This document shows, one piece after another, positions 12,560-34,004 of a stretch of 41,241 nt of DNA (position 1 is its first letter; each line of letters opens with the position of its first letter). Below the pieces are notes generated by a model. It was not told where the DNA came from. It was given only the letters and a program-made list of their open reading frames with translations, and searched no databases. Origin of the DNA: Halorubrum saccharovorum DSM 1137. Lineage in GTDB: Archaea; Halobacteriota; Halobacteria; Halobacteriales; Haloferacaceae. The stretch spans positions 136,590 through 177,830 of the forward strand of contig NZ_AOJE01000021.1 of NCBI RefSeq assembly GCF_000337915.1. Reading direction: 5' to 3'. The translations under genes were made by a program, and so were the position numbers.

Positions 12560-13176
12560 GCCAGGGAAGTTCGTCGCCGTACCGCGAATTCAAAGAGAAG
12601 CTGCAGACGTTCGCACAGGGACAGCACGGCATTCGGAATCCGTTCGTCATCGCGGCTGTCGACCCGACGGTCGAACACCGGGTCACGGAGCGGCTCGAGA
12701 CGTGGTCGGCCGGCCAAGCCGAATCGCCGGAGATCCCGAGCGACATCACCGTACAGCCCATCTGGCTCGACGAACTGCTCCCACGGACCGACGTGTACGA
12801 ACTCCTCGTCGATCTGGGCGCCCCACTGGCTGAGCTCGGCGACGAGCCGTCTCCGGGTGAGCGTATCGAAGCGACGATGCAAGACCGGCTCGCCGACGAG
12901 CTCGTACAGCGGATGATCGAACGGGAGCTCGACGAAGCGCAACTGGAGGATCAGAGCCACGTGGTGCTGCTGCTCAACCTGGGCAGTTTGTACCCGTTTA
13001 CACGCGCGTCGGAACTGCTCGACGAGCTCGACCGACGGAACGTCAAGTCCACGATCGGGATCCCGTTCCCGGGAGACGTCGTCGGCGGAAAGTTGAGCTT
13101 CTTCGGCGGCGAATCGCGGCACTACTACCCCGCCCACCAGATTGACGGCCAGATCCAGGGGGTGCATCTCCAGTGA
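12556..13176 (+). CDS. brxB: BREX protein BrxB (DUF1788 family)
   Basis: The 206-residue product fits BrxB/DUF1788 in length and pattern: an N-terminal helical start, PFVIAAVDPTVEHRV, the central IWLDELLPRTDVYELLVD, a VVLLLNLGSLYPFTRASELLDEL strand-helix unit, and the C-terminal STIGIPFPGDVVGGKLSFFG. The biochemical role of BrxB is unknown; it is an essential component in several BREX systems. It starts with GTG inside a GTGA overlap with the brxC1 stop and ends in another GTGA overlap with the next gene. Its place between two brxC-type genes is different from the usual brxA-brxB-brxC order. Confidence 0.9.
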   Translation: MSQGSSSPYREFKEKLQTFAQGQHGIRNPFVIAAVDPTVEHRVTERLETWSAGQAESPEIPSDITVQPIWLDELLPRTDVYELLVDLGAPLAELGDEPSPGERIEATMQDRLADELVQRMIERELDEAQLEDQSHVVLLLNLGSLYPFTRASELLDELDRRNVKSTIGIPFPGDVVGGKLSFFGGESRHYYPAHQIDGQIQGVHLQ

Positions 13177-16100: not shown

Positions 16101-17003
16101 GCGGACGCCCGCGAACTGTTCGGCGTCGAGGCGGACGGAGCGACGCTCTGGGAGCGCTTCGGCGACGAGCTGAACGCCATGACATCGCTCTATCCGAACG
16201 CGTCGATCACCGCCAGCATGCGAGCGACGGCGGAGAGCGACGCCGTCCCGAGCGTCGCGACGGTCGAATCTCGGCTCCAAGACGCCCGGAGCCACCGCAC
16301 CGACGGAGTCGCCGACCAGTATCGTCGGCTCACGGGAGAGACGACGACCGGGCCCGACCCCGAAGCGATCTGCGGCGATCTCGGCCGCTGGATCCGGTCG
16401 AACGAGGACGGCATCCGCGGCGTCCTCGACTCGGCGACCGCCGAATTCGACGGTATCGATCTGACGGAGCTCACGGCGCTGTTCGAGAGCGTCTGGAACG
16501 GAGAGACGCCCTCAGAGGACGCTCTCGTCGAGACCGACGCCGTGCGGCAGGCCGAGACGTACGCGACCGTCCGCGAACTGTTCGACGACGCGAACGGTGA
16601 GAGCCTCTGGTCCCGGCTCGGCGACGCCGCCGGAGAGCTCCGCTCCGAGCATCCGGAAACGCTGACGCGGGAGTCCGTCGACGCGGCGCTCGCGTCGTCG
16701 ACACCGCCGGCGCCGGGTCGCGTGGAGAGGCTGCTCGAAGAGGCCGAAGACCCGATTCTCGGGGAGGACGCGTGGGAGCGTCTCAAGCACGCGACCGACG
16801 AACTGGACGCGGAACTCCCGAACGCCGACCTCACGCAAACGCTGCGGGCGCGCGTCGACGCCGACGACCGGCCGAGCGAAGCGCGAGCGACGGAGTTACT
16901 GAGCGACGCGAACGACCTGCTCGACCGCGTCCGTGCGGTCAACGAGCGGTTGGACGCTCTCGACGACGGGAGTCTCGTGCTGATCGAGGAGCGTCCCGAG
17001 TGA
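13173..17003 (+). CDS. brxC: BREX ATPase BrxC/PglY, second copy
   Basis: This second large P-loop ATPase has 1276 residues. Walker A is FGSGKT (residues 68-73, in ATFGSGKTHLLKLV) and Walker B is LLGLDEV around 262-268, followed by a strand with VVVTTGQYSLPA. It differs strongly in sequence from the upstream copy, so it is an ancient paralogue and not a recent duplicate. The last 370 or so residues carry an internal repeat of about 160 residues: LGRWIGENS near 911 and LGRWIRSNEDG near 1069, each followed by a LW-x-R-x-GD helix, with a third partial unit near 1197. A GTGA overlap couples it to brxB. Two BrxC/PglY ATPases with BrxHII is the content described for type 5 BREX of Halobacteria. Confidence 0.87.
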   Translation: MTIDELFHGDPTRQLEEVQKVNARERAETDVREFYETDSAEQVLKTLGETVETHPGEAARFLYIHATFGSGKTHLLKLVGLLAGDDSEFASLGDQLAEQWPGFDELQQSITDSHLDSLKPVFLNLLDRDASKEPPLPFLIFEAIGREFGYPTDPNWLLEWAWTLDMEYDGVWEALREFEHDGRTFDDVLAERATLRSWLYDALPAMAETSGTDLNSRPGVKASIETAEADVEPEAFDPEELVSRIEAVTDSLNDGSTQTELLLGLDEVALFVGDSRHRYREFEATMEALQRGPNPVVVTTGQYSLPATRASLIGEPPEDHWTRQQVPLEGADTEIIVRKRWLQKSDPDGRERVESLVASMPDLELHTYSTVTSADPDPVESYPFRAYDLSLLRAVMQELITQGRSTDRDYIQGRALLVLVRSLFTKFGWASNAEGALVTWDVLFDLLVEETTYLPLWVQEMIDNTLVPTFDGDEDAWEVRLAKGLYLLNQTPAVPSTPENLGRLMVGDVTASVDEVVERTESGLATLVDKQKALTETTDRGDEVYTLVSEEQEGILSRAQDEAAKISPHQLSAWVETRLRENDDFFRSEGSRHEVDVGDERLVPLRYDYSVLEPVDRAPSPKYDALRVRVLADDRDTLSEQVETWQDVNDGRDGGEHVLITIDVPETMLERIRNVIGMGTVLEEETESHEELEREHRTDKRRLEASVTGILEDASVYTVHERRGARSGALGDAVGDQVGTVFGSSRKTLSRPLVEVDDAKAMAAFFRGSGEWPLSDADAAMLGVDTSAGELTDTGWCREFIDGYEAQKSVGVETILQQTRTANGDYRGTPQESIAALLITLATSNEDVVLKQDTEYLNDPTTIGRQVRTKGGLSSLTVRFEKKIDPRKVRALVATVGSGDPTGDGIDEWLDELGRWIGENSATVKRTLKGVSREFDVTLESFEATVEPALRGEELTTSDLGSEDDLAAVLEEADTFADARELFGVEADGATLWERFGDELNAMTSLYPNASITASMRATAESDAVPSVATVESRLQDARSHRTDGVADQYRRLTGETTTGPDPEAICGDLGRWIRSNEDGIRGVLDSATAEFDGIDLTELTALFESVWNGETPSEDALVETDAVRQAETYATVRELFDDANGESLWSRLGDAAGELRSEHPETLTRESVDAALASSTPPAPGRVERLLEEAEDPILGEDAWERLKHATDELDAELPNADLTQTLRARVDADDRPSEARATELLSDANDLLDRVRAVNERLDALDDGSLVLIEERPE

Positions 17004-17094
17004 CGGAGTCGCCGGCTCTGCGCGCGGGCGTTCCCGGACGCGGAGACGGGCGTGACAGGAAACGGCTTTGTGGCGAGTGTGAGTTGGAGCCGGT

Positions 17095-18090: not shown

Positions 18091-18099
18091 CCCCCCCAA

Positions 18100-18106
18100 T
18101 TTATTA
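18100..18106 (+). promoter_or_regulatory. TATA box of the 40-residue ORF / HEPN-like gene pair
   Basis: TTTATTA lies 27 bases before the ATG at 18130, directly after the stop of the nuclease-like gene and a run of seven Cs. It predicts an internal leaderless promoter within the BREX cluster, so this pair can be expressed on its own. Confidence 0.6.
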
Positions 18107-18129
18107 CTCCAGTCAGCCAATATTTAGGT

Positions 18130-18252
18130 ATGAGTGCGAAGGGACAACTCCAGCGATTCGAAAATCGGGCGCAGTTACTGCGTCATATCGCTGACGAGAC
18201 CGGCACCGATATCGATACGCTCTGGGATGAATACGAATCCCAGATTGAATAG
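18130..18252 (+). CDS. Small 40-residue protein before the HEPN-like gene
   Basis: The frame encodes MSAKGQLQRFENRAQLLRHI followed by 20 more residues ending in DEYESQIE. It is charged, probably two helices, with no membrane segment or cysteines. The support for it being real is its own TATA box at leaderless distance, haloarchaeal-like acidic composition, and its position 21 bases before the next gene on the same strand. By analogy with two-gene toxin-antitoxin loci it could be a small antitoxin or a regulator of the next gene's product; that is inference. It has no recognisable family motif. Confidence 0.55.
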   Translation: MSAKGQLQRFENRAQLLRHIADETGTDIDTLWDEYESQIE

Positions 18253-18273
18253 TACGATACAGTCTCTTTGCCT

Positions 18274-19716: not shown

Positions 19717-22700
19717 ATGGCAAGCGATTCTCTCTCTCAGCGGACGGCCCAACTGGACAAGGCGGAGCGCGAGCACCTCGAAGACGTGGTCGCCGAGATG
19801 CGCGAGCGCGTCGAAGACAACGTCGCGTTCCAGCTCACCCGGAACGGACTCGACGACGAGCCCGACGACCGCGACGCGCTCGACGAGGACACCAAACGAC
19901 TCGTCGAGGCGATCCGGCTCGAAGCCGTCGACGGCGAGGACTGGACGGAGGCGGTCGACCAGTACGTCACCGGCGTCGGCTACACCGTCGTCAACCGCCT
20001 CGCCGCGCTGCGCTGTATGGAAGTCCGGGAGTTCGTCGACGAGGAGGTCACCGTCTTCAAGCAGAACGGGCTGACGCCCGCCGCCGAGACGCTCGTTCAC
20101 GAGGAGTTCCTCTTGGAGGAGGAGGCGATTCTGGCGGCCTACCACAACGCCTGCGACGACCTGGCCGAGGAGATCGAGATCCTCTTCGACCGGTCGTCGG
20201 CCTACAGCCTGATCGACCCCGACGACGACACCTTCGCGGAACTCTGCGAGATGCTCGATGCGGTCCCCGACGCGGTGTGGCGCGCCGACGACGTGCTCGG
20301 CTGGGTGTACGAGTACTACAACCGTCCCGTCGTCGAGGCGCTCGACGCGAAGAACACCCTCGAACCGGCGGACGTGGGGCCCGCCAACCAGTTCTACACG
20401 CCCCACTGGGTCGTGCGCATGCTCGCGGACAACTCGCTCGGGAAGCTCTACCTCGAAGCGACCGACCGGGCGGACGCCGTCCCGGCGCCCGACGCCCTCG
20501 CTCCCGAGGAGCGCAAGGACCGCCTCGTCACGCCCGAGGACGCCCCCGGCGTCCCCGAGCTCTGCACCTACCTCATTCCGGACGAGGAGCCCGGCGACGC
20601 CCCCGAGTTCGACCACCCGCGCGACCTGCGCGTCATCGATCCGGCCTGCGGCAGCGGGCACTTCCTCCTCTACGCGTTCGACATCCTGGAGCGCATCTGG
20701 TGGGCCGAGACCGATCTGGACCGCGCGGAGATCCCCGCGAAAATCCTCGAACACAACCTCCACGGCGTCGACATCGATCTGCGCTCCTGTCAGCTCTCGG
20801 CGTTCAACCTCTACCTGAAGGCTCGCACGCGGGCCGAGGCGGAGGGCGGCGACTTCGAGATGCCCAACGTCGGGATCGTCTGCGCGGACGCCCGCGTCGC
20901 CGAGGTCGAGGAGGCGACCGACGTGCTCGACGCGATCACGGGCGAGGGGACGGACCTGCGGGAGGCCATCGACGACGTGATCGAGACGTTCCAGCACACC
21001 GAGGCGCTCGGGAGCCTGCTCGACGTGAGCGGGACCCTCGAAGCGGCGTTCGACGCCGGCAAGACGCAGACCGAACTCGGCGACTACAACCAGGGAGCGC
21101 ATCAGTCGCTCAACTCCTTTTTAAAGGCGCTTCGCCGAGCCGTCGACGACCAAACGGGCGACTCGTTCGGCGAGCAGAACCTCCGGAGTTTCCTCCACCT
21201 GCTGGTGGTGCTGACGCAGGAGTACGATACGGCGCTGATGAATCCGCCGTACGGGATGAGAGGCCGAATGCCTGATGATGTTCAGGAGTACGTCACTGAG
21301 CAGTACGATTACTATCCGGAGTACTACGTCAACTTCTTCGAGGCGTGCGAACGGCTCTCGAAGTCAGACGGCCGGATCGGGATGTTGATTCCGTGGTCCT
21401 TCATGTTCCGAAAAGTCTTTGAGGAATTTCGGACGGATTTCGTCAGCGAAGACCGGAATTTCGATTTCCTTGCGGAGTTCGGCTACGACATCCTCGACAA
21501 CGCGACCGTCGGAACAGTCGGAACCGTTCTCCGGGTTGGAACCGCCGGAAACGAGGAGGGGACGTTCATCCGTCTTCACGATGTCGCTAAAGGAGAGAAA
21601 GAGGGGAAGTTCCTCTCCGCATCCTTCGAGAACGCGATGGACGGTAAGGTACAGCGGCGCTTCACCAGAGACACGTCAGAGTTTTCGTTGATACCCGGCG
21701 CATCGGTGTCGTATTGGGTTCCGAAGAAGCTCCGAGAGCTGTACACAGCGGAAACGTTGCTGGACGCAGACAACGCAGAGATGCCAGATAGGGACAGTGT
21801 GGGAGTTGTCAAGCAGGGTCTGGCGACGGGGAACGATGACCGCTTCTTCCGACAGTTCTGGGAGTCGGAGCAGGCCTCAGAACAATTCCCGCCGATCTCG
21901 AAGGGAGGAAGCGACGCGTGGTTGCTTCCGCGGATTAGCAGAACCGTTCTCTGGGAGAACGACGGCCAAGAGGTGAAGCGGTACAGTGGATCACGTCCCC
22001 AGAACACTCAATTCTACTTCAGTGAGGGCGTGACATTTAACAGCCGAAAACGGAGCGGGCGGAACTTCGGCTATATGCATTCCCAATCAGTCTTTTCCCA
22101 CGTCGGGACGGCTATTTTCCCCGACGATCTGACGGCGTGGCCCCTAATTGCGTATCTCAACAGTCGGCTGATGACCTACCTGAAACTGGCACAGACGTTC
22201 GAACGCAAGTGGGAGGTGAGCACTGTCGCACGCCTTCCAGTGATCGACGCCGTCTTCGAAAACGAAGAAGAGCTTGCAGAGGCGGCAAAAGAGCAGGTCG
22301 CTAACGTCGTATCCAAGCGAACTCTCGATTTCACTTCTCCACACTTTTCAGGAACGATGGTCGCTCAGATGGCTGGATATAGTTCCACGGTAGCTTACGA
22401 TCATCCACACAGGACGATCTTAGACGATGTTCCGTGGACTCAGCCGCCGCAGGTGGATCCGGATGTGAGCTTGGAGGAAATGGCCGATCTGGCAGAAAAA
22501 CACCTCCAAGAGATTGACAGCGATCTCGAACAGGTTTCGCGACAGACTGATGAAATGCTGTTTGATTATGTTGGCCTCACCGAGGAACAGCAAACTGACG
22601 TGTTACAGGAGGTGAGTCTCCGAACGATCGACGATCCGCTTGGTGATAGAGCAGAGATCGACGCCTCCGAATCTTCAGCGATTTCGGCAGAGGAGTTGGC

Positions 22701-23925
22701 CAAGGACTTCATTCTCCAGTTGACGATGGAGATCGTTAGCGAGTCCGACGACGGCATCATCCCCATCACCGACATCGACGGCGAAGAGGACCTCCTCACC
22801 CGCATCGAGGCCGAGTTCGAGCGCGTCTGGGGCGACCACGCCGCCGCCCGCCTCGCCGAAGTCGACGAGGTGCTCGGCAGCCGAAGCGCCGCCGAGGAGG
22901 CGTACCCCAACCTCCGAGCCTGGCTCGAAGACGACCTCTTCGACTACCACGTCTCGACGTTCGATCGAACCCCGATCGTCTGGCGGTTCACCACCGAGCG
23001 CCTCGTCTCGGACCCCGAGGGCGAGGGCTTCGGCTGTCTGGTCGACTACCACCGCATCGACGCGGGGCTGTTCGACCGCCTGCGGAACCGCTACCTCGAA
23101 CCGCGGAAGGGCCTGCTGCGCGAGCGCCGATCGGCCGCGAACCGCCGCCGGAGCGACGAGTCGCTGTCGGCGAGCGAGCAGGCCGACGCCGCCGAGGCGT
23201 ACGCCCGGTGCGAGAGCGGGCTCGAACAGATAACGGTGTTCGAGGACCGACTCGCGACGCTGGCGCAGTCCGACCCCCGATCGCTGTCGGCGGCGACGCG
23301 AGAGACCGCCGCGGCGGCCGCCGAGCGCGTCGCCGAGTTCCGCGAGCGAACTGAGGAACGCCTCGAAACCGTCGACGAACTCGCCGCGATGGACGACGTC
23401 GACCTCGGCGAGCTGTTCACCGAGAACTTCTACGAGAAGGTCGAGGGGCGACGCGAGGAGTGGATCGACGCGCTGGACGACCTCGAAGCCGCGTTCGACG
23501 CCTACGCGGCGGACGCGGATCGGCCGGTGGCGGCGCACCGCTACGACCTGTTCGACTACTACACCGAGGACCTCCTCGGGAGTTCGCACTTCGCGAGCAA
23601 CGGCATCCTCTACGTGACCTACTACTTCGACAAGCTCGAACGGGCCGATCAGGCCCGCCTCGACGGCGGCGGCGTCTCGCGGAAACGGCGGCTGATCTCG
23701 TCGCTCGCGAGCGATCTGGACGCGTACGTCGACCTCGGCGAGTCCGTCGCCGACGACTGCGCGGCGGTCTCGTCGGAGATATCCTCCGACTGGGGCGACC
23801 GCGCGCTCGCGGAGGTCACGACCGCCGGCTACCGGCCGACCCGCAAACACGGCGTCGAGATCAACATCGCGCCGCTGGCCGACGCCGAGATCGTGCCGAA
23901 GACCGTCGACGAACGGGTGCTGTGA
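19717..23925 (+). CDS. pglX: BREX adenine-specific DNA methyltransferase PglX, first copy
   Basis: The 1402-residue protein is a PglX/BrxX-type N6-adenine methyltransferase. Motif I is DPACGSGHFLLYAF from residue 308 (AdoMet binding) and motif IV is NPPY at 509-512. A central target-recognition-like region follows, then a long helical C-terminal part (TTERLVSDPEGEGFG onward). The start MASDSLSQ was chosen because it aligns with the second copy's MSGDSLSQ; an ATG 11 codons upstream is less likely. The central part, about 21253-22740, is AT-richer than both ends and unrelated to the same part of pglX2, whereas the ends are nearly identical to it. PglX methylates a host site and in phage defence supplies recognition. 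It lies 75 bases after the HEPN-like gene and its stop is 2 bases before pglZ. Confidence 0.9.
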   Translation: MASDSLSQRTAQLDKAEREHLEDVVAEMRERVEDNVAFQLTRNGLDDEPDDRDALDEDTKRLVEAIRLEAVDGEDWTEAVDQYVTGVGYTVVNRLAALRCMEVREFVDEEVTVFKQNGLTPAAETLVHEEFLLEEEAILAAYHNACDDLAEEIEILFDRSSAYSLIDPDDDTFAELCEMLDAVPDAVWRADDVLGWVYEYYNRPVVEALDAKNTLEPADVGPANQFYTPHWVVRMLADNSLGKLYLEATDRADAVPAPDALAPEERKDRLVTPEDAPGVPELCTYLIPDEEPGDAPEFDHPRDLRVIDPACGSGHFLLYAFDILERIWWAETDLDRAEIPAKILEHNLHGVDIDLRSCQLSAFNLYLKARTRAEAEGGDFEMPNVGIVCADARVAEVEEATDVLDAITGEGTDLREAIDDVIETFQHTEALGSLLDVSGTLEAAFDAGKTQTELGDYNQGAHQSLNSFLKALRRAVDDQTGDSFGEQNLRSFLHLLVVLTQEYDTALMNPPYGMRGRMPDDVQEYVTEQYDYYPEYYVNFFEACERLSKSDGRIGMLIPWSFMFRKVFEEFRTDFVSEDRNFDFLAEFGYDILDNATVGTVGTVLRVGTAGNEEGTFIRLHDVAKGEKEGKFLSASFENAMDGKVQRRFTRDTSEFSLIPGASVSYWVPKKLRELYTAETLLDADNAEMPDRDSVGVVKQGLATGNDDRFFRQFWESEQASEQFPPISKGGSDAWLLPRISRTVLWENDGQEVKRYSGSRPQNTQFYFSEGVTFNSRKRSGRNFGYMHSQSVFSHVGTAIFPDDLTAWPLIAYLNSRLMTYLKLAQTFERKWEVSTVARLPVIDAVFENEEELAEAAKEQVANVVSKRTLDFTSPHFSGTMVAQMAGYSSTVAYDHPHRTILDDVPWTQPPQVDPDVSLEEMADLAEKHLQEIDSDLEQVSRQTDEMLFDYVGLTEEQQTDVLQEVSLRTIDDPLGDRAEIDASESSAISAEELAKDFILQLTMEIVSESDDGIIPITDIDGEEDLLTRIEAEFERVWGDHAAARLAEVDEVLGSRSAAEEAYPNLRAWLEDDLFDYHVSTFDRTPIVWRFTTERLVSDPEGEGFGCLVDYHRIDAGLFDRLRNRYLEPRKGLLRERRSAANRRRSDESLSASEQADAAEAYARCESGLEQITVFEDRLATLAQSDPRSLSAATRETAAAAAERVAEFRERTEERLETVDELAAMDDVDLGELFTENFYEKVEGRREEWIDALDDLEAAFDAYAADADRPVAAHRYDLFDYYTEDLLGSSHFASNGILYVTYYFDKLERADQARLDGGGVSRKRRLISSLASDLDAYVDLGESVADDCAAVSSEISSDWGDRALAEVTTAGYRPTRKHGVEINIAPLADAEIVPKTVDERVL
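19755..20322 (+). repeat. Direct repeat A, copy 1 (5' end of pglX1)
   Basis: These 568 bases align with 26206-26773 at a constant offset of 6451, with no insertion or deletion and only scattered substitutions. Such a pair is long enough for homologous recombination. An exchange between copies would delete the rest of pglX1 and pglZ. Confidence 0.85.
22981..23196 (+). repeat. Direct repeat B, copy 1 (3' part of pglX1)
   Basis: These 216 bases align with 29450-29665 at a constant offset of 6469. A further pair, 23797-23911 and 30362-30476 (offset 6565), covers the 3' ends. Together with repeat A they bracket the unrelated central cassettes of the two pglX genes. Confidence 0.85.
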
Positions 23926-23927
23926 CC

Positions 23928-26093
23928 ATGCCCGCGACCAAGACCCTCCCGCAGTGCGCCGAGGACGCCATCGAGACCGCGATCGACGAGGCGGCCGACG
24001 ACGATCCGGTCGTGCTCTGGTGGGACGACGGCGGCTACCTCCGCGAGGTCGTCGAGAACGCGAGCCGCTCGCTGGGCTGCGCGTTCCGCGCGGCCGAGGG
24101 GACCCCCCTGGAGCTCCGCGCCGAGGCGCCCCGCGACCGCACCGTCTGGTACGTCCCGCAGGCGCGCGGCGACGACGTGGACTGGTTCAGAGACGTCGAA
24201 CACACCGGCGGCGTCGTCGAGGGGCACATCGGTAAGCTCGCGGCGCGCTGCTTCGAGAACGACCGCCTCCAGGCCGCCTCGATCCGCACAGCCTACGAGG
24301 AGTCCGCCGAGGGCGACCGCGAGCAGGTCGCGACGACGCTCTTCCGAGCGCTCAACGGCGAGGGCGGTCTCCCGACGCTTCGGGGGCTCCAGACGAAGAT
24401 CGTCCTCGACGGCCACGACGACCCGGTGCAGTTCGTCCTCGAACACGGCGCCGAGAACCTCCCCGACGACCCCGACGACCTCCTGCAGATCCGCGACCTG
24501 CTGGTCGACGACGGCGTCGCGGCCGTCGCGGGCGTCACCGACGAGGACGAGCTCGTGACGCGGACGCGCCGCTGGGCGGTCGCCGAGTGGCTCGTCGAGG
24601 AGGGGCTCGACGAGTCGCTGCTCGACGCCGACTACCGACCCGATCCCGGGTCGGGGCTGGGCATCTCCCGGCCCGAGCTCCAGTCGCTGCTGAGCAAGGT
24701 CGACACCGGGCGCGCCGGAGAGCTGGCGAGCGTCTACCTCGACCCCGACGCCCGCTTCTGGCACGACGTGTTGCGAACCTACGACGACCCGTGGGAGCTC
24801 GCCGACTGCCCGGTCGACGCCTCGCTCGAACACGAGCTGTGGGACGACTGGACGCGCTCCTTCCGCGAGGGCGCGTACGAGACGTGCGCGGCCCGGGCGT
24901 CGACGCGCCACCGGCGGCTGGAGACGGTCTACGGCGACGTCCCGTGGACGCGCGTCTGGGAGCAGGCCGTCGAGGTCGCCAACCTCGGGCACGAGCTCGA
25001 AACGTGGGAAGAGCGCGGCGACACGACCGACGTCGTCGACCTCTACGGCGACGTCGAGGACGGGACCTGGCAGATCGACAACGCCGTCTACAACCTCATC
25101 GTCTCGGGCGACCCCGAGGCCGCCCTTCCCGAAGAGCATCCCGCGACGGCGACGCTCGGCGACCTGCGGGCGTCGCTGACCGAGTCGCGCTATCTCGACT
25201 ACCTCAGCGACCTCGGCGACCTCGTCGCCGACCAGATCGAGGGGGGCTCGCCGTTCGCCGGCGAAAACCACGCCCACCAGTTCTTCGATCAGGAGCAAGA
25301 GCACCTCCAGAGCGGACAGAGCGTGGCGCTGTTCGTCGTCGACGCGCTGCGCTTCGACCTCGCACACGAGCTGGCCGAGTCCGTCCGCCGCGAACTCCCG
25401 GGCCTCGAAGTCGACGAGACACCCTGGGTCGGAACGCTCCCCTCGGACACCGAGTTCGGAAAGGCGGCGCTCACGCCCGGCAGCACGTTCAGTTTCAACG
25501 TCGAGCTCGACGACGGGGAGCTCGTCCCCCAGCGCAACGGCCGCGCGATCGACAACCGCCAGCGCGAGAAGCTGTTGCGGGAGGACGGCTGGAGCTACAT
25601 CATGCAGAGCGAGGACGACGCGTCGGGCTGGAGCAGCACCCGCGTCGCCTACTACTGGAACGACCTCGACAAGGCCGGCGAGGAGGAGCTGACCGACTTC
25701 GAGGCCGTGTTCAGCGACCGGATCGAGACGATCTCGGATATCATCTGCGAGAAGATCGACCGGGGCGAGTGGGACCGGGCGTACATCCTCGCCGATCACG
25801 GTTTCGTCTCCCTCCCGCAAAGCGTCGACATCGACGACATCCACCCGCCGGACGAGGCCGAGAAAGTGACCCGCCGGTGGGTCGCCGGCGAGGACCTCGA
25901 CGCGGACGCGCCGGGCGTCCTCCTCGACGAGAACGCGCACCTCGGCTACCTCGACGACGACACGAGGATCAGCGCCCTCGCGGACCCGATCCAGCGCTTC
26001 CGCAATCAGGGGCTCCCCGACGCCCGCTTCTACCACGGCGGCGTCCTCCCCCAGGAGTTCGTGCTGAACTTCGTCACGATCACGCAGGAGTGA
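23928..26093 (+). CDS. pglZ: BREX alkaline-phosphatase-superfamily protein PglZ
   Basis: The 721-residue protein ends in a PglZ domain of the alkaline phosphatase superfamily. Metal-site motifs are present: VVDALRFD with D472, ILADHGFVSLP with D623 and H624, and YHGG with H703. The N-terminal 450 residues are helical and acidic, starting with a WWDDGGYLREVV segment seen in PglZ proteins. PglZ is a core BREX component required for defence; a metal-dependent phosphatase or nuclease role has been discussed, and its in vivo substrate is not settled. The ATG is two bases after the pglX1 stop and 74 bases separate its stop from pglX2. It lies between two pglX genes, so one PglZ may serve both methyltransferases. 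Confidence 0.9.
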   Translation: MPATKTLPQCAEDAIETAIDEAADDDPVVLWWDDGGYLREVVENASRSLGCAFRAAEGTPLELRAEAPRDRTVWYVPQARGDDVDWFRDVEHTGGVVEGHIGKLAARCFENDRLQAASIRTAYEESAEGDREQVATTLFRALNGEGGLPTLRGLQTKIVLDGHDDPVQFVLEHGAENLPDDPDDLLQIRDLLVDDGVAAVAGVTDEDELVTRTRRWAVAEWLVEEGLDESLLDADYRPDPGSGLGISRPELQSLLSKVDTGRAGELASVYLDPDARFWHDVLRTYDDPWELADCPVDASLEHELWDDWTRSFREGAYETCAARASTRHRRLETVYGDVPWTRVWEQAVEVANLGHELETWEERGDTTDVVDLYGDVEDGTWQIDNAVYNLIVSGDPEAALPEEHPATATLGDLRASLTESRYLDYLSDLGDLVADQIEGGSPFAGENHAHQFFDQEQEHLQSGQSVALFVVDALRFDLAHELAESVRRELPGLEVDETPWVGTLPSDTEFGKAALTPGSTFSFNVELDDGELVPQRNGRAIDNRQREKLLREDGWSYIMQSEDDASGWSSTRVAYYWNDLDKAGEEELTDFEAVFSDRIETISDIICEKIDRGEWDRAYILADHGFVSLPQSVDIDDIHPPDEAEKVTRRWVAGEDLDADAPGVLLDENAHLGYLDDDTRISALADPIQRFRNQGLPDARFYHGGVLPQEFVLNFVTITQE

Positions 26094-26167
26094 CTCCGCC
26101 TCTCCCGGGCCCGCTTCGGCAAGGTTGATATGACGGGGGGCGGTCCTAACACACAATTCTCAGCCTC

Positions 26168-29100
26168 ATGTCAGGCGATTCCCTCTCCCAGCGGCAGGCG
26201 CAGTTGGACAAGGCGGAGCGCGAACACCTCGAGGACGTGGTCGCCGAGATGCGCGAGCGCGTCGAGGACAACGTCGCGTTCCAGCTCACCCGGAACGGAC
26301 TCGACGACGAGCCCGACGATGTCGACGCGCTCGACGAGGACACCAAACGGCTCGTCGAGGCGATCCGGCTCGAAGCCGTCGACGGCGAGACGTGGGACGA
26401 GGCGGTCGACCAGTACGTCACGGGGGTCGGCTACACCATCGTCAACCGCCTCGCCGCGCTGCGCTGTATGGAGGTCCGGAGCTTCGTCGACGAGGAGGTC
26501 ACCGTCTTCAAGCAGAACGGGCTGACCCCCGCCGCCGAGACGCTCGTTCACGAGGAGTTCCTCTTGGAAGAGGAGGCCATCCTCGAAGCGTATCACGACG
26601 CCTGCGACGACCTGGCCGAGGAGATCGAGATCCTCTTCGACCGGTCGTCCGCGTACAGCCTGATCGACCCCGACGACGACACCTTCGAGGCGCTCTGCGG
26701 GATGCTCGATTCGGTCCCCGACGCGGTGTGGCGCGCCGACGACGTGCTCGGCTGGGTGTACGAGTACTACAACGTCGACCTGCTCGACGACCTGCGTCGC
26801 AAGGGCGACCGCGAGGGGCTCGAACCCGAGGACGTGCCGCCGGCGAACCAGTTCTACACGCCCCACTGGGTCGTGCGCATGCTCACCGACAACTCGCTCG
26901 GGAAGCTCTACCTCGAACACACGGGCGAGCTACAGGAGGTCGTCGACACGCAGGAGGCGTTCTCGCCGGACGAGCGGAAGAACCGCCCCCTGTCACCGGA
27001 CGAGTCGCCCGATATCGCCGATTTCTGCACCTACCTCGTGCCGAGCGAGGAGGAGGGCGAGCCGACCGACTTCGATCACCCCGAGGAGCTTCGCGTGATC
27101 GATCCGGCCTGCGGCAGCGGGCACTTCCTCCTCTACGCCTTCGACGTGCTCGAACGCATCTGGCGCGCCGAGACCGACCTCCCCGACGAGCAGATTCCCC
27201 GGAAGATCCTCGAACACAACCTCTACGGCGTCGACCTCGACATGCGCGCGTGTCAGCTCTCGGCGTTCAACCTCTACCTGAAGGGTCGCACTCGCGCGGA
27301 GGCCGAGGGCGCCGACGGCTTCGACATGCCCGAGGTCGGGATCGTGTGTGCCGACGCGAGTGTCGCCGAGGTCGACGGCGTCGAGGCGGTGTTCGACGAG
27401 GTCGCCGGCGACGATCCCGAGGTCGCGCAGGCGCTCGATCGCATCCTCGACGCCTTCGAGGAGGTTCACGGGCTCGGGAGCCTGCTCGACGTGCGCGGGA
27501 CGCTCGGCGACCTGTTCGAGGACGACGCCGAGGTCGGCGGCACGCAACTCACGCTCGGCGACGACCCCCGCGAGAGCCACACCCTCGGGCAGGTGCTCCA
27601 CAGTCTGCGGGAGGCGGTAGAGGAACACCGCGAAACCGACTCGTTCCTCGCGCAGGACCTCCGGAGTTTCGTGCGACTGCTGGACATTCTGGCGCAGGAT
27701 TACGACGTGGCGCTGATGAATCCGCCGTATGGGTCTCGGAATCGGATGCCGGAAAGCGTGAAAGGGTACATCCGGGAACACTACGACTATCCCGCAGAGT
27801 TCTACGTCAATTTCTTCGAAGTTTGCGAGAACATCACTTCCTCTGGCGGCCGTATCGGGATGCTAGTGCCCCAATCCTTTATGCTAAAGAACAAATTCCG
27901 AGAGTTCAGGAAGGATTTCATAAACGGTAATAATAACTTCGACTTCTTGGCAGAGTTTGGGTTAGGTATTCTGGACAACGCGACAGTCAGGACCGCGGCA
28001 ACGGTCACTCGATCAGGTGTTGAGCAATCAGATCCGACGGGGTACTTCCTACGCCTGCATGACCTTCCATCTCACGAGAAGGAGAGTGTATTCAACGATC
28101 TAATCACTGGTGCCGAAACTGATGTTACGCGGACCTTCGAGGTTCCACTTAGCGAATTCGCAGATATTCCCGGACATACAATATGCTACTCGACTCCTTC
28201 GGAGGTTCGAGAGCTACATGACTCTGAGCTAAAGCTTGACGCCGAGCAGGCCGACATCGAAGGAGAATCTGTCGGCGTCGCTCGTCAAGGAGTGGCTACC
28301 GCGGATAACGATCGATTTCTCCGTTTTCACTGGGAATCGTCGGGGCTTAGCGATTATGAGCCCATCGCAAGCGGTGGTAAGGATGCTTGGGTTGCGCCAT
28401 TGATCTCCGAAACTGTGGAATGGGGAGACAACGGCGAACGAATAAAACGTTCCAGTCAAACGATCCGAACTCCCAATGAATCGCTATACGGGAAGGAGGG
28501 TCTGACGTGGACGAGAGTGAAGAAAACCGGGCGAAGATTTGGTTACTATCCTGGTGGACTGTTCAGTGACACGGGGTACCTCTTCGTGCCCGACGAAGAG
28601 TATTCGCCGTGGGAGATTATGTCGGTAGTGAACTCGACGCTATACCACTCGTTATTCTTGTCTCTTAGTACAGAGAGAAACTGGAACTCCGGAGACGTTG
28701 GAAGAATGCCGTGGTTCAGGAAGTTCGAGAATACTTCTGGCCTCAAAGAGGTGGCAAAAGACCAGTATAAAACGATGATTGAGAGATATCACTCTGATCC
28801 AGCCAGTCCATACTACGTCGGGCCAGAGATGCTCCCCCAGGATGTGGCAGATGAATTTTCGTACTCTCATCCACATACTTCAGTGATAGTCGATGGAGTG
28901 TCTCCTGAGTACGGAGTCACTGACCCGAGCCAGCCGATTAGCGCTCTTGCGAGAGAGTCTAAACAAAAAGATATCTCTCGGCGGAAGGAACTACTGGAAT
29001 CTTTTGCAAAAATAAATAAAATCGTGTACGATGCCGTCGATATTTCCAAAGACACGAGGGAAGAGATACTTGAAGAGGTCTATCTGCGAACGTTAGAGTC

Positions 29101-30490
29101 CCCCGAAGATCGCGAAGTGCCCGATCCTGAATCGGTCCCCGAAGTTCCCGACAACATCGACGAGCAGGTCAAGGACCTCGTCCATCACTTCGCGATGGAG
29201 GCCGTCCGCGAGGAGGACGACGGGATCGTTCCGGTGTATGAGACCGACGACCAGCCCGACATGCTCGATCGGATCGTCGAGCGCTTCGAGGACGCCTACG
29301 GCGAGCACGCCGCCGATCGGCTGATCGAGGTCGACGAGATCCTCGGGACCGAGTCCGCCAGCGAGGAGGCGTACCCCAACCTCCGGGCGTTCGTCGCCGA
29401 GGACCTCTTCGACTACCACGTCGATCGCATGGCGAACACGCCGATCGTCTGGCGGTTCACCACCGAGCGCCTCGTCTCCGACTCGACCGGCGAGGGCTTC
29501 GCCTGCTTCGTCGACTACCACGGCATCGACGCCGGGCTGTTCGACCGCCTCTCGAACCGCTACCTCGAACCGCGGAAGGCCGACCTGCGCGAGCGCCGGT
29601 CGGCGGCCAACCGCCGCCGGAGCGACGACTCGCTGTCGGCGAGCGAGCAGGCCGACGCCGCGGAGCGGTACGAGCGCTGCGCGAGCGGCCTCGACCAGAT
29701 CGCCGTCTTCGAAGACGTGCTCCAGGAGTTGGGCAGCACCGACGAGCGCGACTTCGACGACGAGGACCGCGAGCGCGTCGCGGACCTGGCCCCGAAGGTC
29801 GCCGCCTTCCGCGAGGAGACCCGCCAGCGCGTCGAGACGCTTGCTGACCTGCGCGAGCGCAAGAGCGACGAGTGGTTCCGAGAGACGTTCTCGAACAACT
29901 TCTGGAACGCCGTCGACGAGTGGCGCGACGAGTGGCTCGACGCCCTCGCCGACCTCGAACGCGCCTGCGAGGCGTACGGCCGACCCAGCGACGAGCCGGT
30001 CGAAGCGCACCTCGCCGACCTGTTCGACTACTTCTCCTGGCGGCTCAAGGGCTCGGACCACTACTCCAGTACGGGCATCCTCTTTCTGACCTACTACTTC
30101 GAGCGCGAGGGCGCCGCCCTCCTCGACGACGAGGGGCACCCGCACGACAACCTGACCGCGGACGAGCGCCTGCTCGCCTCGCTCGCGACCGGCCTCGACG
30201 ACCCGAGCGTCGTCGACCGGGAGTACCTGGAGGCGATGGCCGACGCGGAGGGCGTCGAGAGCGCCGCCGACCTCCCGCCGCTGGCCGAGTTCAAGGCGCT
30301 CGCCGAGGAGATCGACGACCGCTGCCAGGCCGTGGACGAGCGGGTCCCCTCGGACTGGGCCGACCGCGCGCTCGCGGAGGTCACGACCGCCGGCTACCGA
30401 CCGAACCGCAAACACGGCGTCGAGATCAACATCTCGCCGCTCGCCGACGCCGAGATCGTGCCGAAGACCGTCGACGACCAGGTGTTGTAA
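26168..30490 (+). CDS. pglX: BREX adenine-specific DNA methyltransferase PglX, second copy
   Basis: The 1440-residue protein has motif I DPACGSGHFLLYAF from residue 312 and motif IV NPPY at 518-521, so both AdoMet-binding and catalytic motifs are intact. The N-terminal 200 residues and the C-terminal third are very close to the first copy. The central region, about 27733-29170, differs completely and is AT-rich, with codons such as ATA, AAT and TTA rare in the flanks. It includes a KDAWVAPLI segment parallel to SDAWLLPRI in the first copy, so the architecture is conserved while the sequence has changed. The two enzymes probably recognise different DNA sites. It is followed by a 94-base gap containing a 9-bp tandem repeat and then brxHII. 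Confidence 0.9.
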   Translation: MSGDSLSQRQAQLDKAEREHLEDVVAEMRERVEDNVAFQLTRNGLDDEPDDVDALDEDTKRLVEAIRLEAVDGETWDEAVDQYVTGVGYTIVNRLAALRCMEVRSFVDEEVTVFKQNGLTPAAETLVHEEFLLEEEAILEAYHDACDDLAEEIEILFDRSSAYSLIDPDDDTFEALCGMLDSVPDAVWRADDVLGWVYEYYNVDLLDDLRRKGDREGLEPEDVPPANQFYTPHWVVRMLTDNSLGKLYLEHTGELQEVVDTQEAFSPDERKNRPLSPDESPDIADFCTYLVPSEEEGEPTDFDHPEELRVIDPACGSGHFLLYAFDVLERIWRAETDLPDEQIPRKILEHNLYGVDLDMRACQLSAFNLYLKGRTRAEAEGADGFDMPEVGIVCADASVAEVDGVEAVFDEVAGDDPEVAQALDRILDAFEEVHGLGSLLDVRGTLGDLFEDDAEVGGTQLTLGDDPRESHTLGQVLHSLREAVEEHRETDSFLAQDLRSFVRLLDILAQDYDVALMNPPYGSRNRMPESVKGYIREHYDYPAEFYVNFFEVCENITSSGGRIGMLVPQSFMLKNKFREFRKDFINGNNNFDFLAEFGLGILDNATVRTAATVTRSGVEQSDPTGYFLRLHDLPSHEKESVFNDLITGAETDVTRTFEVPLSEFADIPGHTICYSTPSEVRELHDSELKLDAEQADIEGESVGVARQGVATADNDRFLRFHWESSGLSDYEPIASGGKDAWVAPLISETVEWGDNGERIKRSSQTIRTPNESLYGKEGLTWTRVKKTGRRFGYYPGGLFSDTGYLFVPDEEYSPWEIMSVVNSTLYHSLFLSLSTERNWNSGDVGRMPWFRKFENTSGLKEVAKDQYKTMIERYHSDPASPYYVGPEMLPQDVADEFSYSHPHTSVIVDGVSPEYGVTDPSQPISALARESKQKDISRRKELLESFAKINKIVYDAVDISKDTREEILEEVYLRTLESPEDREVPDPESVPEVPDNIDEQVKDLVHHFAMEAVREEDDGIVPVYETDDQPDMLDRIVERFEDAYGEHAADRLIEVDEILGTESASEEAYPNLRAFVAEDLFDYHVDRMANTPIVWRFTTERLVSDSTGEGFACFVDYHGIDAGLFDRLSNRYLEPRKADLRERRSAANRRRSDDSLSASEQADAAERYERCASGLDQIAVFEDVLQELGSTDERDFDDEDRERVADLAPKVAAFREETRQRVETLADLRERKSDEWFRETFSNNFWNAVDEWRDEWLDALADLERACEAYGRPSDEPVEAHLADLFDYFSWRLKGSDHYSSTGILFLTYYFEREGAALLDDEGHPHDNLTADERLLASLATGLDDPSVVDREYLEAMADAEGVESAADLPPLAEFKALAEEIDDRCQAVDERVPSDWADRALAEVTTAGYRPNRKHGVEINISPLADAEIVPKTVDDQVL
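26206..26773 (+). repeat. Direct repeat A, copy 2 (5' end of pglX2)
   Basis: This is the partner of 19755-20322. The similarity extends to the shared GAGTACTACAAC and then drops, with a short length difference between the genes immediately after. Confidence 0.85.
29450..29665 (+). repeat. Direct repeat B, copy 2 (3' part of pglX2)
   Basis: This is the partner of 22981-23196, encoding the WRFTTERLVS to SASEQADAAE stretch in both proteins. Confidence 0.85.
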
Positions 30491-30584: not shown

Positions 30585-33500
30585 ATGTCACCGACACCAG
30601 ATCTCGCCCCCGGCGACGCGATCACGCTCAACGGCACCCCGGCGGAAGTCATCACGACGGACGCCGTCGGCGACCTCGACTACCTCCGAGCGTACGTCGA
30701 GGGCGACGGCGTGAAGACGGTCTGTCTCGACGACGTCGAGGTCGAGCCGACGCGCGACCGGCTCGCCGCCCTCTCGCCGGCGGCGGCCGATCAGCTGCAC
30801 CCGGACCACGAGGCGGTCTCGGCCGAGTGGTTCGACCTGCGCTCGCAGGCGCTTCGACTGCAGATCGCCCACGAGCAGGGCCAACTGCTGAGCATCTCGA
30901 ACTCGCTGGTCCGGCTCGAACCCTACCAGCTCGCCGCGGTCAACTGGGTGATGCAGAAGCTCCGGCAGCGCGCCCTCATCGCCGACGACGTCGGCCTCGG
31001 GAAGACCATCGAAGCGGGGCTCATCCTCAAGGAACTCACCGCCCGGAATCGCGCCGACCGCGTCCTGTTCGTCGTTCCCGCCCACCTCCAGAAGAAGTGG
31101 ATCCGCGACATGGACCGCTTCTTCGACATCGACCTCACGCCCGCCGACAGGCAGTGGGTCGAGGGAGAGCGCCGGCGACTCGGCGAGGCGGCCAACATTT
31201 GGGACCAAGACCACCAGCAGATGGTCGCGAGTCAGGCCTTCCTCCGACAGGACGAGTTCCGCTCGGCCCTCGAGGAAGCGTTCTGGGACGTGGCGATAGT
31301 CGACGAGGCGCACAAGGCCGCCAAACGGGGCGAGTCCCCCAGTAAGACGTCGAAGATGGTCGAACGGGTCGCCGGCAACTCCGACTCCCTGCTGCTGCTC
31401 AGCGCGACGCCACACGACGGGAAGGGCGAGGCGTTCCGCTCGCTCGTCGAGTACATCGATCCCTTCCTCGTCGCCGAGGACCGAGACCTCTCGAAGGAGG
31501 CCGTCGATCGCGTGATGATTCGTCGCGGGAAGCAGACGCTGTACGACGACGACGGCGAACGCATTTTCCCAGACCGTGAGGTCAACACCGTTCCCGTGGA
31601 GATGACCCACGACGAGCGGCAGTTCTATCGGGCGGTTACCGACTACGTCCAGAACGTCTACAACCGCTCCGAGAAGCTGAACGAGCCCGCGGTCGGGTTC
31701 GCGATGGCGCTCATGCAGAAACGGCTGGTCAGCAGTATCGGCGCCATTCGGGCGACGCTGAGCCGTCGCTTGGGCGACCTCGTCGACGAGCAGTCGACCT
31801 CCACGAGCCTCTCGGAGGAGGCCGCCGCGTATCTCGACGGCGAGGACCTCGACGAGGAGGACAAACAACGAGCCGAGGAGGAACTCTCGGCGCTGACCGT
31901 CACCGAGAGCGACGCGCAACTCGAAGAGGAGATCGAGACGCTTCGCGATCTGGTCGCGCTGGCCGAGGGCATCTCCGTCGACTCGAAGGCCCAGAAGGTG
32001 CGTCGCTACATCCAACAGCTCTTAGAGGAGCAACCCGACGAGAAACTGCTCCTGTTCACCGAGTACCGCGACACGCTCGATTACCTCCTGGAGTTGGTGA
32101 AAGACGAACCGTGGGCCGACGAGATCCTCGTCATCCACGGCGACGTCGACAAGGAGGAACGCGCCCGCATCGAAGACGAGTTCAACCACGGCCAGTCCCG
32201 GCTGCTCTTCGCGACCGACGCCGCGAGCGAGGGGATCGACCTCCAGCACAGCTGCCACATCATGGTGAACTACGAGCTGCCGTGGAACCCGAACCGACTC
32301 GAACAGCGCATCGGTCGCCTCCACCGCTACGGACAGGACAAGGAGGTCAACGTCTGGAACTTCACGTTCGACGATACGCGCGAGGGCGAGATCTTCGACA
32401 TGCTCCAGACCAAGGTCGAGGCCATCCGCGGCAAGCTCGGCAACACGGCCGACGTGCTGGGGATGCTCGACGACATCGACGTCGACTCGCTCATCATGGA
32501 GTCGCTCCGGGACGACGAACCTGCGAGCGCGACCACCGAGGAACTCGAGGCGCTCATCGACGAGCGCCAACGCACGCTCCAGGAGTGGTACGAACGCAGC
32601 CTCATCGACACGAGCACGTTCGACCAGAAGAGCCGAGAGAGGATCCGGGAGGTCATGGACGAGTCCGAGGACGTCTACGGGACGGAGGCCGACATCCACG
32701 AGTTCGTGGAGCGCGGCGTCGAGGCGCTCGGTGGCGACGTCGAGAAAGCCGGGAGCAGTCTCTACAGGGCCCGGCTCCCCCGCTCGCTTCGGCAGGGAAC
32801 GGACGAGGAGTACGGGCCGTTCACGTTCAGTCGAGAGTTCGCGATGGACCACGACGGCATCGACTACGTGTCGCCGGACGACGAGCTGGTCCAGCGACTC
32901 ATGCAGCAAATCCTGGACAGCGAGCACGGCGGTGCCGGACTGAAGCTCCTCCCGTTCGTTGACGAGCCGGGCATCGCGTACAATTACCGCGTGACGTTCG
33001 AGGACGGAACGGGCGACGTCATCCGCGAAGAGATGATCCCCGTGTACGTGGATTCCCGCCACCGAGACCCTCGACAGCGACTGGGCCGGCGCGTTGTCCA
33101 CGGGGACAGCGTCAGCGGATCGCCCGACACAGACCGTGTTCGGGCACTGATTCAACAGCGGGATCGGCTGCGGACAGCGGCTGATCGCTACATCAGCCAG
33201 CGGGTCGCCTCCCTGAGAGCGGAGCTACACGAACGGCGCCGAGAGGAGACCCAACAAGAACTCGATGACCTAGAGGCGTACGCAGAAGCCGAACGACAGC
33301 GCATCGAGGAGTTCATCGAGGAGTACGAGCGGAAGGCGGAGGCCGGGTCGAATATGGACATCGCCATTCGGGGCCAACAGGAGCGGCTGACCAAGCTCGA
33401 ACAGCGGATCGAGGACCGACGGGAGGAATTACAGCGGAAGGCGCAGGTCATCTCACTCGCGCCCGAAGTCGAGAATATCTGCCTGTCGCTCCCGGTCTGA
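30585..33500 (+). CDS. brxHII: BREX helicase BrxHII (SNF2/DEAH-type)
   Basis: The 971-residue protein is a superfamily 2 helicase/translocase of the SNF2-related kind. Motif I is DDVGLGKT with K140, motif II is DEAH at 240-243, motif III is LLLLSATPHDG, and the C-terminal RecA domain has LLLFTEYRDTL, ATDAASEGIDLQ and QRIGRLHRYGQ (motif VI). A coiled-coil-like tail (residues 840-960, RREETQQELDDLEAY and onward) follows. BrxHII is the helicase listed for BREX types 3 and 5, and takes the place of BrxL or BrxHI in other types. It is the last gene of the cluster. The start has a minisatellite directly upstream, and an 84-base spacer after the stop leads into another tandem repeat. Confidence 0.9.
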   Translation: MSPTPDLAPGDAITLNGTPAEVITTDAVGDLDYLRAYVEGDGVKTVCLDDVEVEPTRDRLAALSPAAADQLHPDHEAVSAEWFDLRSQALRLQIAHEQGQLLSISNSLVRLEPYQLAAVNWVMQKLRQRALIADDVGLGKTIEAGLILKELTARNRADRVLFVVPAHLQKKWIRDMDRFFDIDLTPADRQWVEGERRRLGEAANIWDQDHQQMVASQAFLRQDEFRSALEEAFWDVAIVDEAHKAAKRGESPSKTSKMVERVAGNSDSLLLLSATPHDGKGEAFRSLVEYIDPFLVAEDRDLSKEAVDRVMIRRGKQTLYDDDGERIFPDREVNTVPVEMTHDERQFYRAVTDYVQNVYNRSEKLNEPAVGFAMALMQKRLVSSIGAIRATLSRRLGDLVDEQSTSTSLSEEAAAYLDGEDLDEEDKQRAEEELSALTVTESDAQLEEEIETLRDLVALAEGISVDSKAQKVRRYIQQLLEEQPDEKLLLFTEYRDTLDYLLELVKDEPWADEILVIHGDVDKEERARIEDEFNHGQSRLLFATDAASEGIDLQHSCHIMVNYELPWNPNRLEQRIGRLHRYGQDKEVNVWNFTFDDTREGEIFDMLQTKVEAIRGKLGNTADVLGMLDDIDVDSLIMESLRDDEPASATTEELEALIDERQRTLQEWYERSLIDTSTFDQKSRERIREVMDESEDVYGTEADIHEFVERGVEALGGDVEKAGSSLYRARLPRSLRQGTDEEYGPFTFSREFAMDHDGIDYVSPDDELVQRLMQQILDSEHGGAGLKLLPFVDEPGIAYNYRVTFEDGTGDVIREEMIPVYVDSRHRDPRQRLGRRVVHGDSVSGSPDTDRVRALIQQRDRLRTAADRYISQRVASLRAELHERRREETQQELDDLEAYAEAERQRIEEFIEEYERKAEAGSNMDIAIRGQQERLTKLEQRIEDRREELQRKAQVISLAPEVENICLSLPV

Positions 33501-33583
33501 TCGCGGCGGGTTCACGGTCAGTCGATCGGGACGGGGAACCTGTCGCCCGGCGAGATTAGCGGTCGACCAGAAGGTGCGTCGTC

Positions 33584-33945: not shown

Positions 33946-34004
33946 TCATTGGTCGTGAGACACACACCGATGGAGTTGAAGTCAGCTGTCAAATTGTCTT
34001 TATT

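What the first reader, a model, noticed from the sequence alone, without database searches (positions are those of the whole stretch)
19717..30490. Two PglX genes with near-identical ends and unrelated central cassettes: specificity shuffling in BREX
Directly visible: 19755-20322 aligns to 26206-26773 at constant offset 6451 without an indel, and further blocks align at 22981-23196/29450-29665 and 23797-23911/30362-30476. Between them, from just after NPPY (about 21253-22740 and 27733-29170), the two genes share no evident nucleotide similarity and are AT-richer than their flanks. In PglX the region after the methyltransferase motifs holds target recognition. Inference: central cassettes have been swapped in by recombination at the conserved flanks, giving two methylation specificities in one BREX with a single PglZ. 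The direct repeats also permit deletion of pglZ or creation of chimaeric pglX genes.
Basis: partly seen in the sequence, partly recalled or inferred. Interest (0 to 1): 0.82.

Follow-up and report, generated by a model that had tools for sequence, protein, structure and literature searches.

The report
Mosaic pglX pair in haloarchaeal BREX
A salt-loving archaeon carries two versions of the sequence-reading enzyme of one antiviral system, and comparison with about 60 relatives shows that this enzyme is assembled from swappable parts (fixed ends, two interchangeable catalytic frames, freely exchanged DNA-reading centres), which probably lets one defence system patrol two different DNA words.

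Summary
Observation partly confirmed. The locus is a complete BREX type 5 cluster with two intact pglX genes around one pglZ. The repeat blocks are real; the first ends at codon 202 of both genes, at the N-terminal-domain (NTD) border. The centres are not unrelated: they align colinearly (about 10-60% amino-acid identity), but synonymous sites are random and GC3 is low.

The genes are not a recent duplicate with one swapped centre. Their frames (aa 203-515, about 1031-1387) belong to two ancient classes, A and B, each occurring alone in other haloarchaea. Across 53 PglX from 45 loci: the NTD (and less strongly the last ~50 aa) follows the locus (PglZ), not the class; frames follow class; centres follow neither closely. 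Class on the PglZ tree is near random (12 changes; shuffled mean 13.8). The seam ...WRADDVLGWVYEYYN|RPVVEALD (A) or |V(K/D)LLDDL (B) recurs; seven held-out plasmid loci agree. Two Haloarcula pairs show natural before/after swaps. In the window the two NTDs are each other's closest relatives, implying recombination between copies.

Best reading: one BREX-5 with two specificities, built from locus-matched ends, alternative frames and exchanged target-recognition modules. Methylation and partner docking are untested.

The parts
7974..8810 (+). brxA
   Evidence: PADLOC BrxA PDLC02456, E 7e-123
8783..12559 (+). brxC copy a
   Evidence: PADLOC BrxC PDLC02474, 1943 bits
12556..13176 (+). brxB
   Evidence: PADLOC BrxB PDLC02467, E 1.8e-96
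13173..17003 (+). brxC copy b
   Evidence: PADLOC BrxC PDLC02473, 1937 bits
17052..19641 (+). two uncharacterised genes (17052-18194, 18268-19641) between brxCb and pglX1; homologues at the same place in some relatives (e.g. L042, L049, L068)
   Evidence: no Pfam or NCBIfam match and no meaningful PADLOC match; tblastn in relatives
19717..23925 (+). pglX1, class A BREX-5 methyltransferase (1402 aa)
   Evidence: NF033454 2489 bits, cut-off 900; class by frame tree
19717..20322 (+). pglX1 NTD (aa 1-202), locus-matched and homogenised with pglX2; ends in WRADDVLGWVYEYYN
   Evidence: 93% aa, 4-fold identity 0.87 v 0.48 expected; NTD tree pairs it with pglX2, SH-aLRT 98
20323..21252 (+). pglX1 class A frame, N part (methyltransferase domain up to NPPY)
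21253..22740 (+). pglX1 variable centre with the target recognition domain; low GC3; nearest found L113 (78% over aa 641-850) and L096 (77%)
22747..23763 (+). pglX1 class A frame, C part
23764..23922 (+). pglX1 C-terminal tail, homogenised with pglX2
   Evidence: 4-fold identity 0.81 v 0.48 expected
23928..26093 (+). pglZ, the single phosphatase-like effector
   Evidence: NF033444 1116 bits, cut-off 250
26168..30490 (+). pglX2, class B BREX-5 methyltransferase (1440 aa), in the pglZ-brxHII slot where relatives carry other cargo
   Evidence: NF033454 2431 bits
26168..26773 (+). pglX2 NTD (aa 1-202)
26774..27730 (+). pglX2 class B frame, N part
27731..29215 (+). pglX2 variable centre with the target recognition domain
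29216..30328 (+). pglX2 class B frame, C part
30329..30487 (+). pglX2 C-terminal tail
30585..33500 (+). brxHII helicase
   Evidence: PADLOC BrxHII PDLC02504, 1926 bits

Best explanation
This is a complete BREX type 5 locus that carries two full-length PglX methyltransferase/specificity proteins sharing one PglZ and one set of BrxA/B/C/HII proteins. PglX in this family is a three-layer mosaic. (i) The NTD (aa 1-202), and less clearly the last ~50 residues, stay with the locus and are homogenised between the two copies by recombination; I infer that they dock PglX to its partner proteins. (ii) The catalytic frame (about aa 203-515 and 1031-1387) exists in two ancient, interchangeable classes, A (pglX1) and B (pglX2), joined to the NTD at an exact seam after WRADDVLGWVYEYYN. 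(iii) The centre (about aa 516-1020), which holds the target recognition domain, is exchanged mostly within a class and sets the recognised DNA word. New specificity is acquired by homologous recombination of a frame, or of the downstream part holding the centre, into locus-matched ends. In this genome one slot carries an A product and the other a B product, so the system should methylate, and restrict by, two different asymmetric m6A motifs. Shown: the mosaic, the seam, the class alternation, homogenised ends, natural swaps. Inferred: two active specificities, docking by NTD and tail, homologous recombination as the route.
For: BREX-5 identity of both PglX, PglZ and the neighbours. Regression of distance on PglZ distance and class (53 PglX, 45 loci): NTD beta PglZ 0.88, class 0.08; frame segments 201-300, 401-515, 1191-1387: class 0.77-0.92, PglZ 0.06-0.13; centre: PglZ about 0, class 0.34-0.50. 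Trees: NTD groups the window pair (98*), needs 1 change for PglZ clade but 11 for class, class A monophyly rejected p-AU 2e-45; the frame needs 1 change for class, window pair rejected p-AU 3.5e-50. Class of the upstream pglX on the PglZ tree: 12 changes against shuffled mean 13.8 (95 of 500 shuffles as low), at least 9 forced by starred branches; on brxHII 13 v 13.7. Change point at aa 202-203 in 9 of 10 A/B comparisons, C side 1393-1407 in 10 of 10. Natural swaps in Haloarcula and a centre-only difference between H. pellucida paralogues. Hold-out: 7 of 7 plasmid loci have NTDs that follow PglZ clade; a Haloplanus locus of the divergent layout has a class A frame (76%) on a foreign NTD (54-55%), and a Haladaptatus one has a centre 78% like pglX1 on a 50% NTD. 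GC3 of the centre lower than the ends in 53 of 53. In E. coli BrxX the NTD is 1-210, the target recognition domain 651-837, and NTD/CTD are suggested partner-interacting regions (PMC11842806); changing residues in this region alters PglX specificity (PMC11341690).
Against: No methylation data; both specificities are inferred from sequence. That NTD and tail follow the locus could be plain linkage plus gene conversion and not partner docking; the data cannot separate these. The tail follows locus less strictly (beta PglZ 0.58, class 0.26). In the Haloarcula core swap the tail moved with the core, so the right-hand seam is variable. Trees are quick maximum-likelihood trees with many weak branches. 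One genome per species, so swap rates within a population are unknown. Low GC3 of the centre might have causes other than turnover.
Confidence: 0.74

Rival explanations
1. Recent duplication of one pglX with replacement of only the central cassette.
For: Near-identical NTD and tail and strongly diverged centre. This is exactly the pattern in Haloarcula pellucida (both class B; flanks up to 96-100% nt, centre about 50%).
Against: In the window the frames on both sides of the centre belong to different ancient classes; the pair as a clade on frame data is rejected with p-AU 3.5e-50, and each copy's frame is closest to other genera.
Confidence: 0.06
2. The ends look alike only because of strong protein-level constraint, with no DNA exchange between the copies.
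For: NTD and tail are conserved blocks in all relatives (mean pairwise identity 77% and 73%).
Against: 4-fold degenerate sites in the window NTD pair are 87% identical where composition predicts 48%, and 89% v 39% in L069; the pair groups with SH-aLRT 98 in the NTD tree, and the L069 pair with 96.
Confidence: 0.05
3. Only one PglX is active; the other is a decoy, a silent donor of recognition modules for gene conversion, or on its way out.
For: Single pglX is the norm; one second copy has an internal stop (L052); pglX is broken or gutted in several relatives (L062, L071, L072, L086; L060).
Against: Both window genes are intact with catalytic motifs, 2-94 bp from their neighbours on the same strand; intact two-copy loci recur in both PglZ clades.
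Confidence: 0.2
4. NTD and tail follow the locus purely through linkage and recombination mechanics, with no partner-specific docking.
For: Seams lie in conserved blocks, where homologous recombination finds homology; no direct interaction data for type 5.
Against: The seam coincides with the NTD/methyltransferase border of solved BrxX; the downstream copy, not adjacent to the same genes, also carries the locus-type NTD.
Confidence: 0.4

Closest known systems
BREX type 5 (NCBIfam NF033454 PglX, NF033444 PglZ; PADLOC BrxHII)
   Same: All components and the haloarchaeal setting; both PglX score far above the curated cut-off
   Different: Two pglX of different frame classes on either side of pglZ; the mosaic structure is not described in the papers I could read. 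Goldfarb 2015, which defines type 5, is not held, so duplicated pglX may be mentioned there.
BREX type 1 PglX/BrxX (E. coli 9EWZ, Salmonella 8C45)
   Same: Same protein family and domain order; best structural match of the pglX1 model (Foldseek E 2.9e-35); TRD changes alter specificity (PMC11341690)
   Different: About 200 residues longer; type 5 uses BrxHII instead of BrxL; no two-class frame alternation reported
Type I restriction-modification with duplicated hsdS (PMC7394358)
   Same: Several specificity proteins share one set of partners; conserved regions flank variable recognition domains; recombination creates new specificities
   Different: Here specificity and catalysis are in one polypeptide, the copies are direct repeats around pglZ, and a whole catalytic frame alternates as well as the recognition part
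Allelic recognition-domain exchange in type III mod and type IIG/MmeI-like enzymes
   Same: Variable central recognition domain between conserved methyltransferase parts
   Different: Normally one copy with alleles across strains; here three nested layers with different histories, two copies in one locus (comparison from general knowledge)

Membership tests
BREX type 5 | PglX of the BREX-5 family above the curated cut-off | tested here: met
   NF033454 2489 and 2431 bits, cut-off 900
BREX type 5 | BREX-5 PglZ | tested here: met
   NF033444 1116 bits, cut-off 250
BREX type 5 | brxA, brxB, two brxC, brxHII in one cluster, no brxL | tested here: met
   PADLOC hits for each; no BrxL among the scanned cluster genes
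BREX type 5 | Haloarchaeal host | tested here: met
   same-genus loci include Halorubrum records; relatives are all Halobacteria
BREX type 5 | m6A at asymmetric sites and virus exclusion | not testable with these tools
   needs methylation calling and infection assays
Phase-variable specificity shufflon (inverting hsdS type) | Inverted repeats allowing inversion | tested here: not met
   pglX1 and pglX2 are direct repeats; the two inverted pairs found are short, 73-76% complementary and do not pair the pglX genes
Phase-variable specificity shufflon (inverting hsdS type) | Dedicated site-specific recombinase in the locus | tested here: inconclusive
   no recombinase among the scanned genes; two genes at 17052-19641 remain unassigned
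Type I restriction-modification | Separate HsdM, HsdS and HsdR subunits | tested here: not met
   methyltransferase and recognition parts lie in one polypeptide; best family is BREX-5 PglX

The most novel reading that the evidence does not exclude
BREX-5 PglX is a plug-in enzyme: NTD and tail are locus-specific docking adaptors, and two catalytic frame classes (A and B), kept as alternatives across haloarchaeal genera, are repeatedly swapped into them at a fixed seam with their own pools of recognition modules; loci such as this one run both frames at once with one PglZ, giving a BREX with two simultaneous specificities.
Probability: 0.45. Interest if true: 0.75.

Novelty: new variant of a known kind. 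Interest (0 to 1): 0.6.

Why it matters
How BREX changes its target is open, and so is which parts of PglX bind the rest of the complex. The seam after WRADDVLGWVYEYYN, the two frame classes and the natural swap pairs in Haloarcula give ready-made chimaeras for testing both: which parts are docking, which are frame and which are recognition. A BREX with two PglX would also be a simple way for one defence system to cover two DNA words.

Tried and rejected
Simple duplication plus cassette swap: rejected for the window by the frame tree. Chance or compositional similarity of the ends: rejected by 4-fold sites against composition. A recombination hotspot seen as raised synonymous conservation at the seam: not found (4-fold identity 44% at codons 181-200, like the neighbours). 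A pglX-less BREX clade (L097-L103): I first read these as lacking pglX; plasmid records of the same clade show pglX and brxHII divergently transcribed beyond my 20-kb stretch, so rejected. An AddAB-like helicase-nuclease as partner of that clade: not consistent among its members. AlphaFold models: the pglX1 203-1402 model has good centre and C part but a poor methyltransferase part (mean pLDDT 74.7), and the 1-1200 model a poor NTD (67.8), so contacts between class-specific segments could not be read. The literature search found no description of frame classes or seam, but the library lacks most subscription papers.
Full report
Setting. The window is part of a 3.4-Mb haloarchaeal genome (G000, contig C21). 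It holds brxA, brxC, brxB, a second brxC, two unassigned genes, pglX1 (19717-23925), pglZ (23928-26093), pglX2 (26168-30490) and brxHII (30585-33500), all on the + strand. NCBIfam places both PglX and PglZ in BREX-5 with scores far above the cut-offs. No other pglX is in the genome.

Checking the observation. The repeat finder returns the stated blocks and some more. A codon alignment through the whole genes shows aa 1-200 at 90-95% amino-acid identity per window, then an abrupt drop, a patchwork of 32-85% up to NPPY, a centre at 10-62%, then 29-85%, and the last ~50 aa at 80-85%. So the centre is homologous and colinear, not unrelated, but its synonymous sites are random: 4-fold identity 0.29, against 0.87 in the NTD and 0.48 expected from composition. 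Its GC3 is 0.51-0.70 against 0.90-0.97 elsewhere, and this contrast holds in all 53 PglX examined.

Relatives. PglZ relatives were found in 62 of 391 Halobacteria genomes, and 29 loci came from named genomes; flanking DNA was read from these and from 40 stretches of the surveyed genomes. PglZ falls into clade I (70% identity or more to the window) and clade II (49-53%). Most loci have one pglX upstream of pglZ; 8 of the 45 loci with a full-length pglX have a second between pglZ and brxHII.

Three layers. Segment by segment, every PglX resembles either pglX1 or pglX2 in aa 201-515 and 1031-1387, and these segments go together. I call these frames class A and class B (my names); one protein, L044, fits neither well. 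Between loci of the same PglZ clade, same-class against different-class identity is 83 v 82% for the NTD, 87 v 57% for 201-300, 79 v 43% for 401-515, 47 v 40% for 641-850 and 79 v 74% for the tail. Between clades the NTD falls to 70-71% whatever the class, while the frame stays at 84% (201-300) within a class. A two-predictor distance regression says the same. NTD tree: window copies are sisters (98*), PglZ clade needs 1 change, class needs 11. Frame tree: class needs 1 change, and the window pair is rejected with p-AU 3.5e-50.

Class alternation. Mapped on the PglZ tree, the class of the upstream pglX changes 12 times, against 13.8 for shuffled labels (95 of 500 shuffles as low; at least 9 changes forced by well-supported branches), and 13 v 13.7 on the brxHII tree. 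The frame class is thus almost random with respect to the locus, as expected from repeated exchange.

The seam. Change-point analysis of A/B pairs puts the left joint at aa 202-203 in 9 of 10 comparisons (aa 159 in L069) and the right joint at aa 1393-1407 in all 10. The sequence reads ...WRADDVLGWVYEYYN followed by RPVVEALDAKN (A) or VKLLDDLRRKGD (B; VDLLDDLRRKGD in the window). In E. coli BrxX the NTD is 1-210, the methyltransferase domain 211-650, the target recognition domain 651-837 and the CTD 838-1205 (PMC11842806). The sequence alignment places our aa 192-202 at the end of that NTD and our ~665-852 on its recognition domain.

Natural swaps. H. argentinensis (L088) and G168 (L090) are 96% identical over 4.8 kb up to codon 201 of the upstream pglX and again over 11.1 kb from the pglZ start, but between these points one has an A core and the other a B core. 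H. amylolytica (L058) and G084 (L095) match at 94-99% up to aa ~400 of the upstream pglX and at 98% from pglZ on, but differ between (75-79% at 401-515, about 50% in the centre, about 83% after it). Within a class, centre similarity is only weakly tied to frame similarity (rho 0.21-0.22), with 85 pairs whose frames are 85% or more alike but whose 641-850 regions are under 50%.

Hold-out. Ten plasmid loci were analysed after the model was formed. In the 7 with pglZ of clade I or II, the NTD followed the PglZ clade every time, and the frame scored clearly higher for one class, with the expected seam motif (variant in L109). In the other three, from a divergent layout with pglX and brxHII beside brxA, the NTD was foreign to both clades (49-57%), yet Haloplanus has a class A frame (76%) and Haladaptatus has a centre 78% identical to that of pglX1.

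Homogenised ends. In the window and in L069, which each carry one A and one B gene, the two NTDs are closer to each other than to any other NTD (93 and 95% aa; third positions 87 and 90% against 77% for the best other), although the next 100 aa are only 54 and 60% alike. Composition cannot explain this. So the copies have exchanged DNA at their ends, or one core was dropped into a duplicate of the other gene.

Mechanism. Shown: the mosaic, the seam, the alternation, homogenised ends. Inferred: the centre sets the methylated word (TRD changes alter specificity in Salmonella PglX; PMC11341690); NTD and tail dock to partners, since E. coli BrxX methylates only with BrxB, BrxC and BrxZ and the authors suggest NTD/CTD for interactions (PMC11842806); both window enzymes are active, giving two specificities with one PglZ. 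Recognition types shared at >=60% identity stay within a class except for one divergent protein, so the window's two centres were probably drawn from two pools.

Limits. One genome per species, quick trees, no methylation data, moderate structure models. Linkage and docking cannot be told apart from sequence. Goldfarb 2015 could not be read, so duplicated pglX as such may be known; the frame classes, the seam and the alternation were not found in the papers searched.

Noticed in passing
L060 9636-9998 and 12148-12432 (Halorubrum sp. 48-1-W): pglX is reduced to its first ~58 residues fused in frame to its C-terminal tail, and next to it brxHII is reduced to residues ~1-55 fused to 935-971, while brxA, both brxC, brxB and pglZ are intact: two neighbouring genes gutted with both ends kept in frame.
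   Followed up: partly
L066 and L075: BREX-5 loci with no full-length pglX or brxHII in the stretch read (L075 keeps the C-terminal ends of both); whether copies lie elsewhere in the genome was not checked.
   Followed up: no
Spacers between pglX, pglZ and brxHII in relatives (e.g. L032 9453-9998, L069 15465-15893, L051 5622-9855 and 12218-13495): These junctions are cargo slots: a recurring ~180-aa protein of no known family, a PD-(D/E)XK endonuclease (PF11645), an OLD-like ATPase with TOPRIM, a 425-aa protein. In the window the pglZ-brxHII slot holds pglX2.
   Followed up: partly
L110, L111, L113: Third BREX-5 layout: pglX and brxHII transcribed divergently from brxA-brxC-brxB-brxC, with an NTD unlike that of clades I and II.
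   Followed up: partly
window 33915-35337: Tandem pair of archaeal type IV pilin-like genes (Pilin_N) just downstream of BREX, with near-identical N-terminal parts and diverged C-terminal parts.
   Followed up: no
window 33578-33667: Array of 5.3 copies of a 17-bp unit GTCGTCGATGTTCCGGT right after brxHII.
   Followed up: no
window 35488-35862: Fragment resembling an IS240-type transposase DDE domain (below the curated cut-off) downstream of BREX.
   Followed up: no
window 17052-19641: Two genes of no known family between brxCb and pglX1, with homologues at the same place in several relatives.
   Followed up: partly
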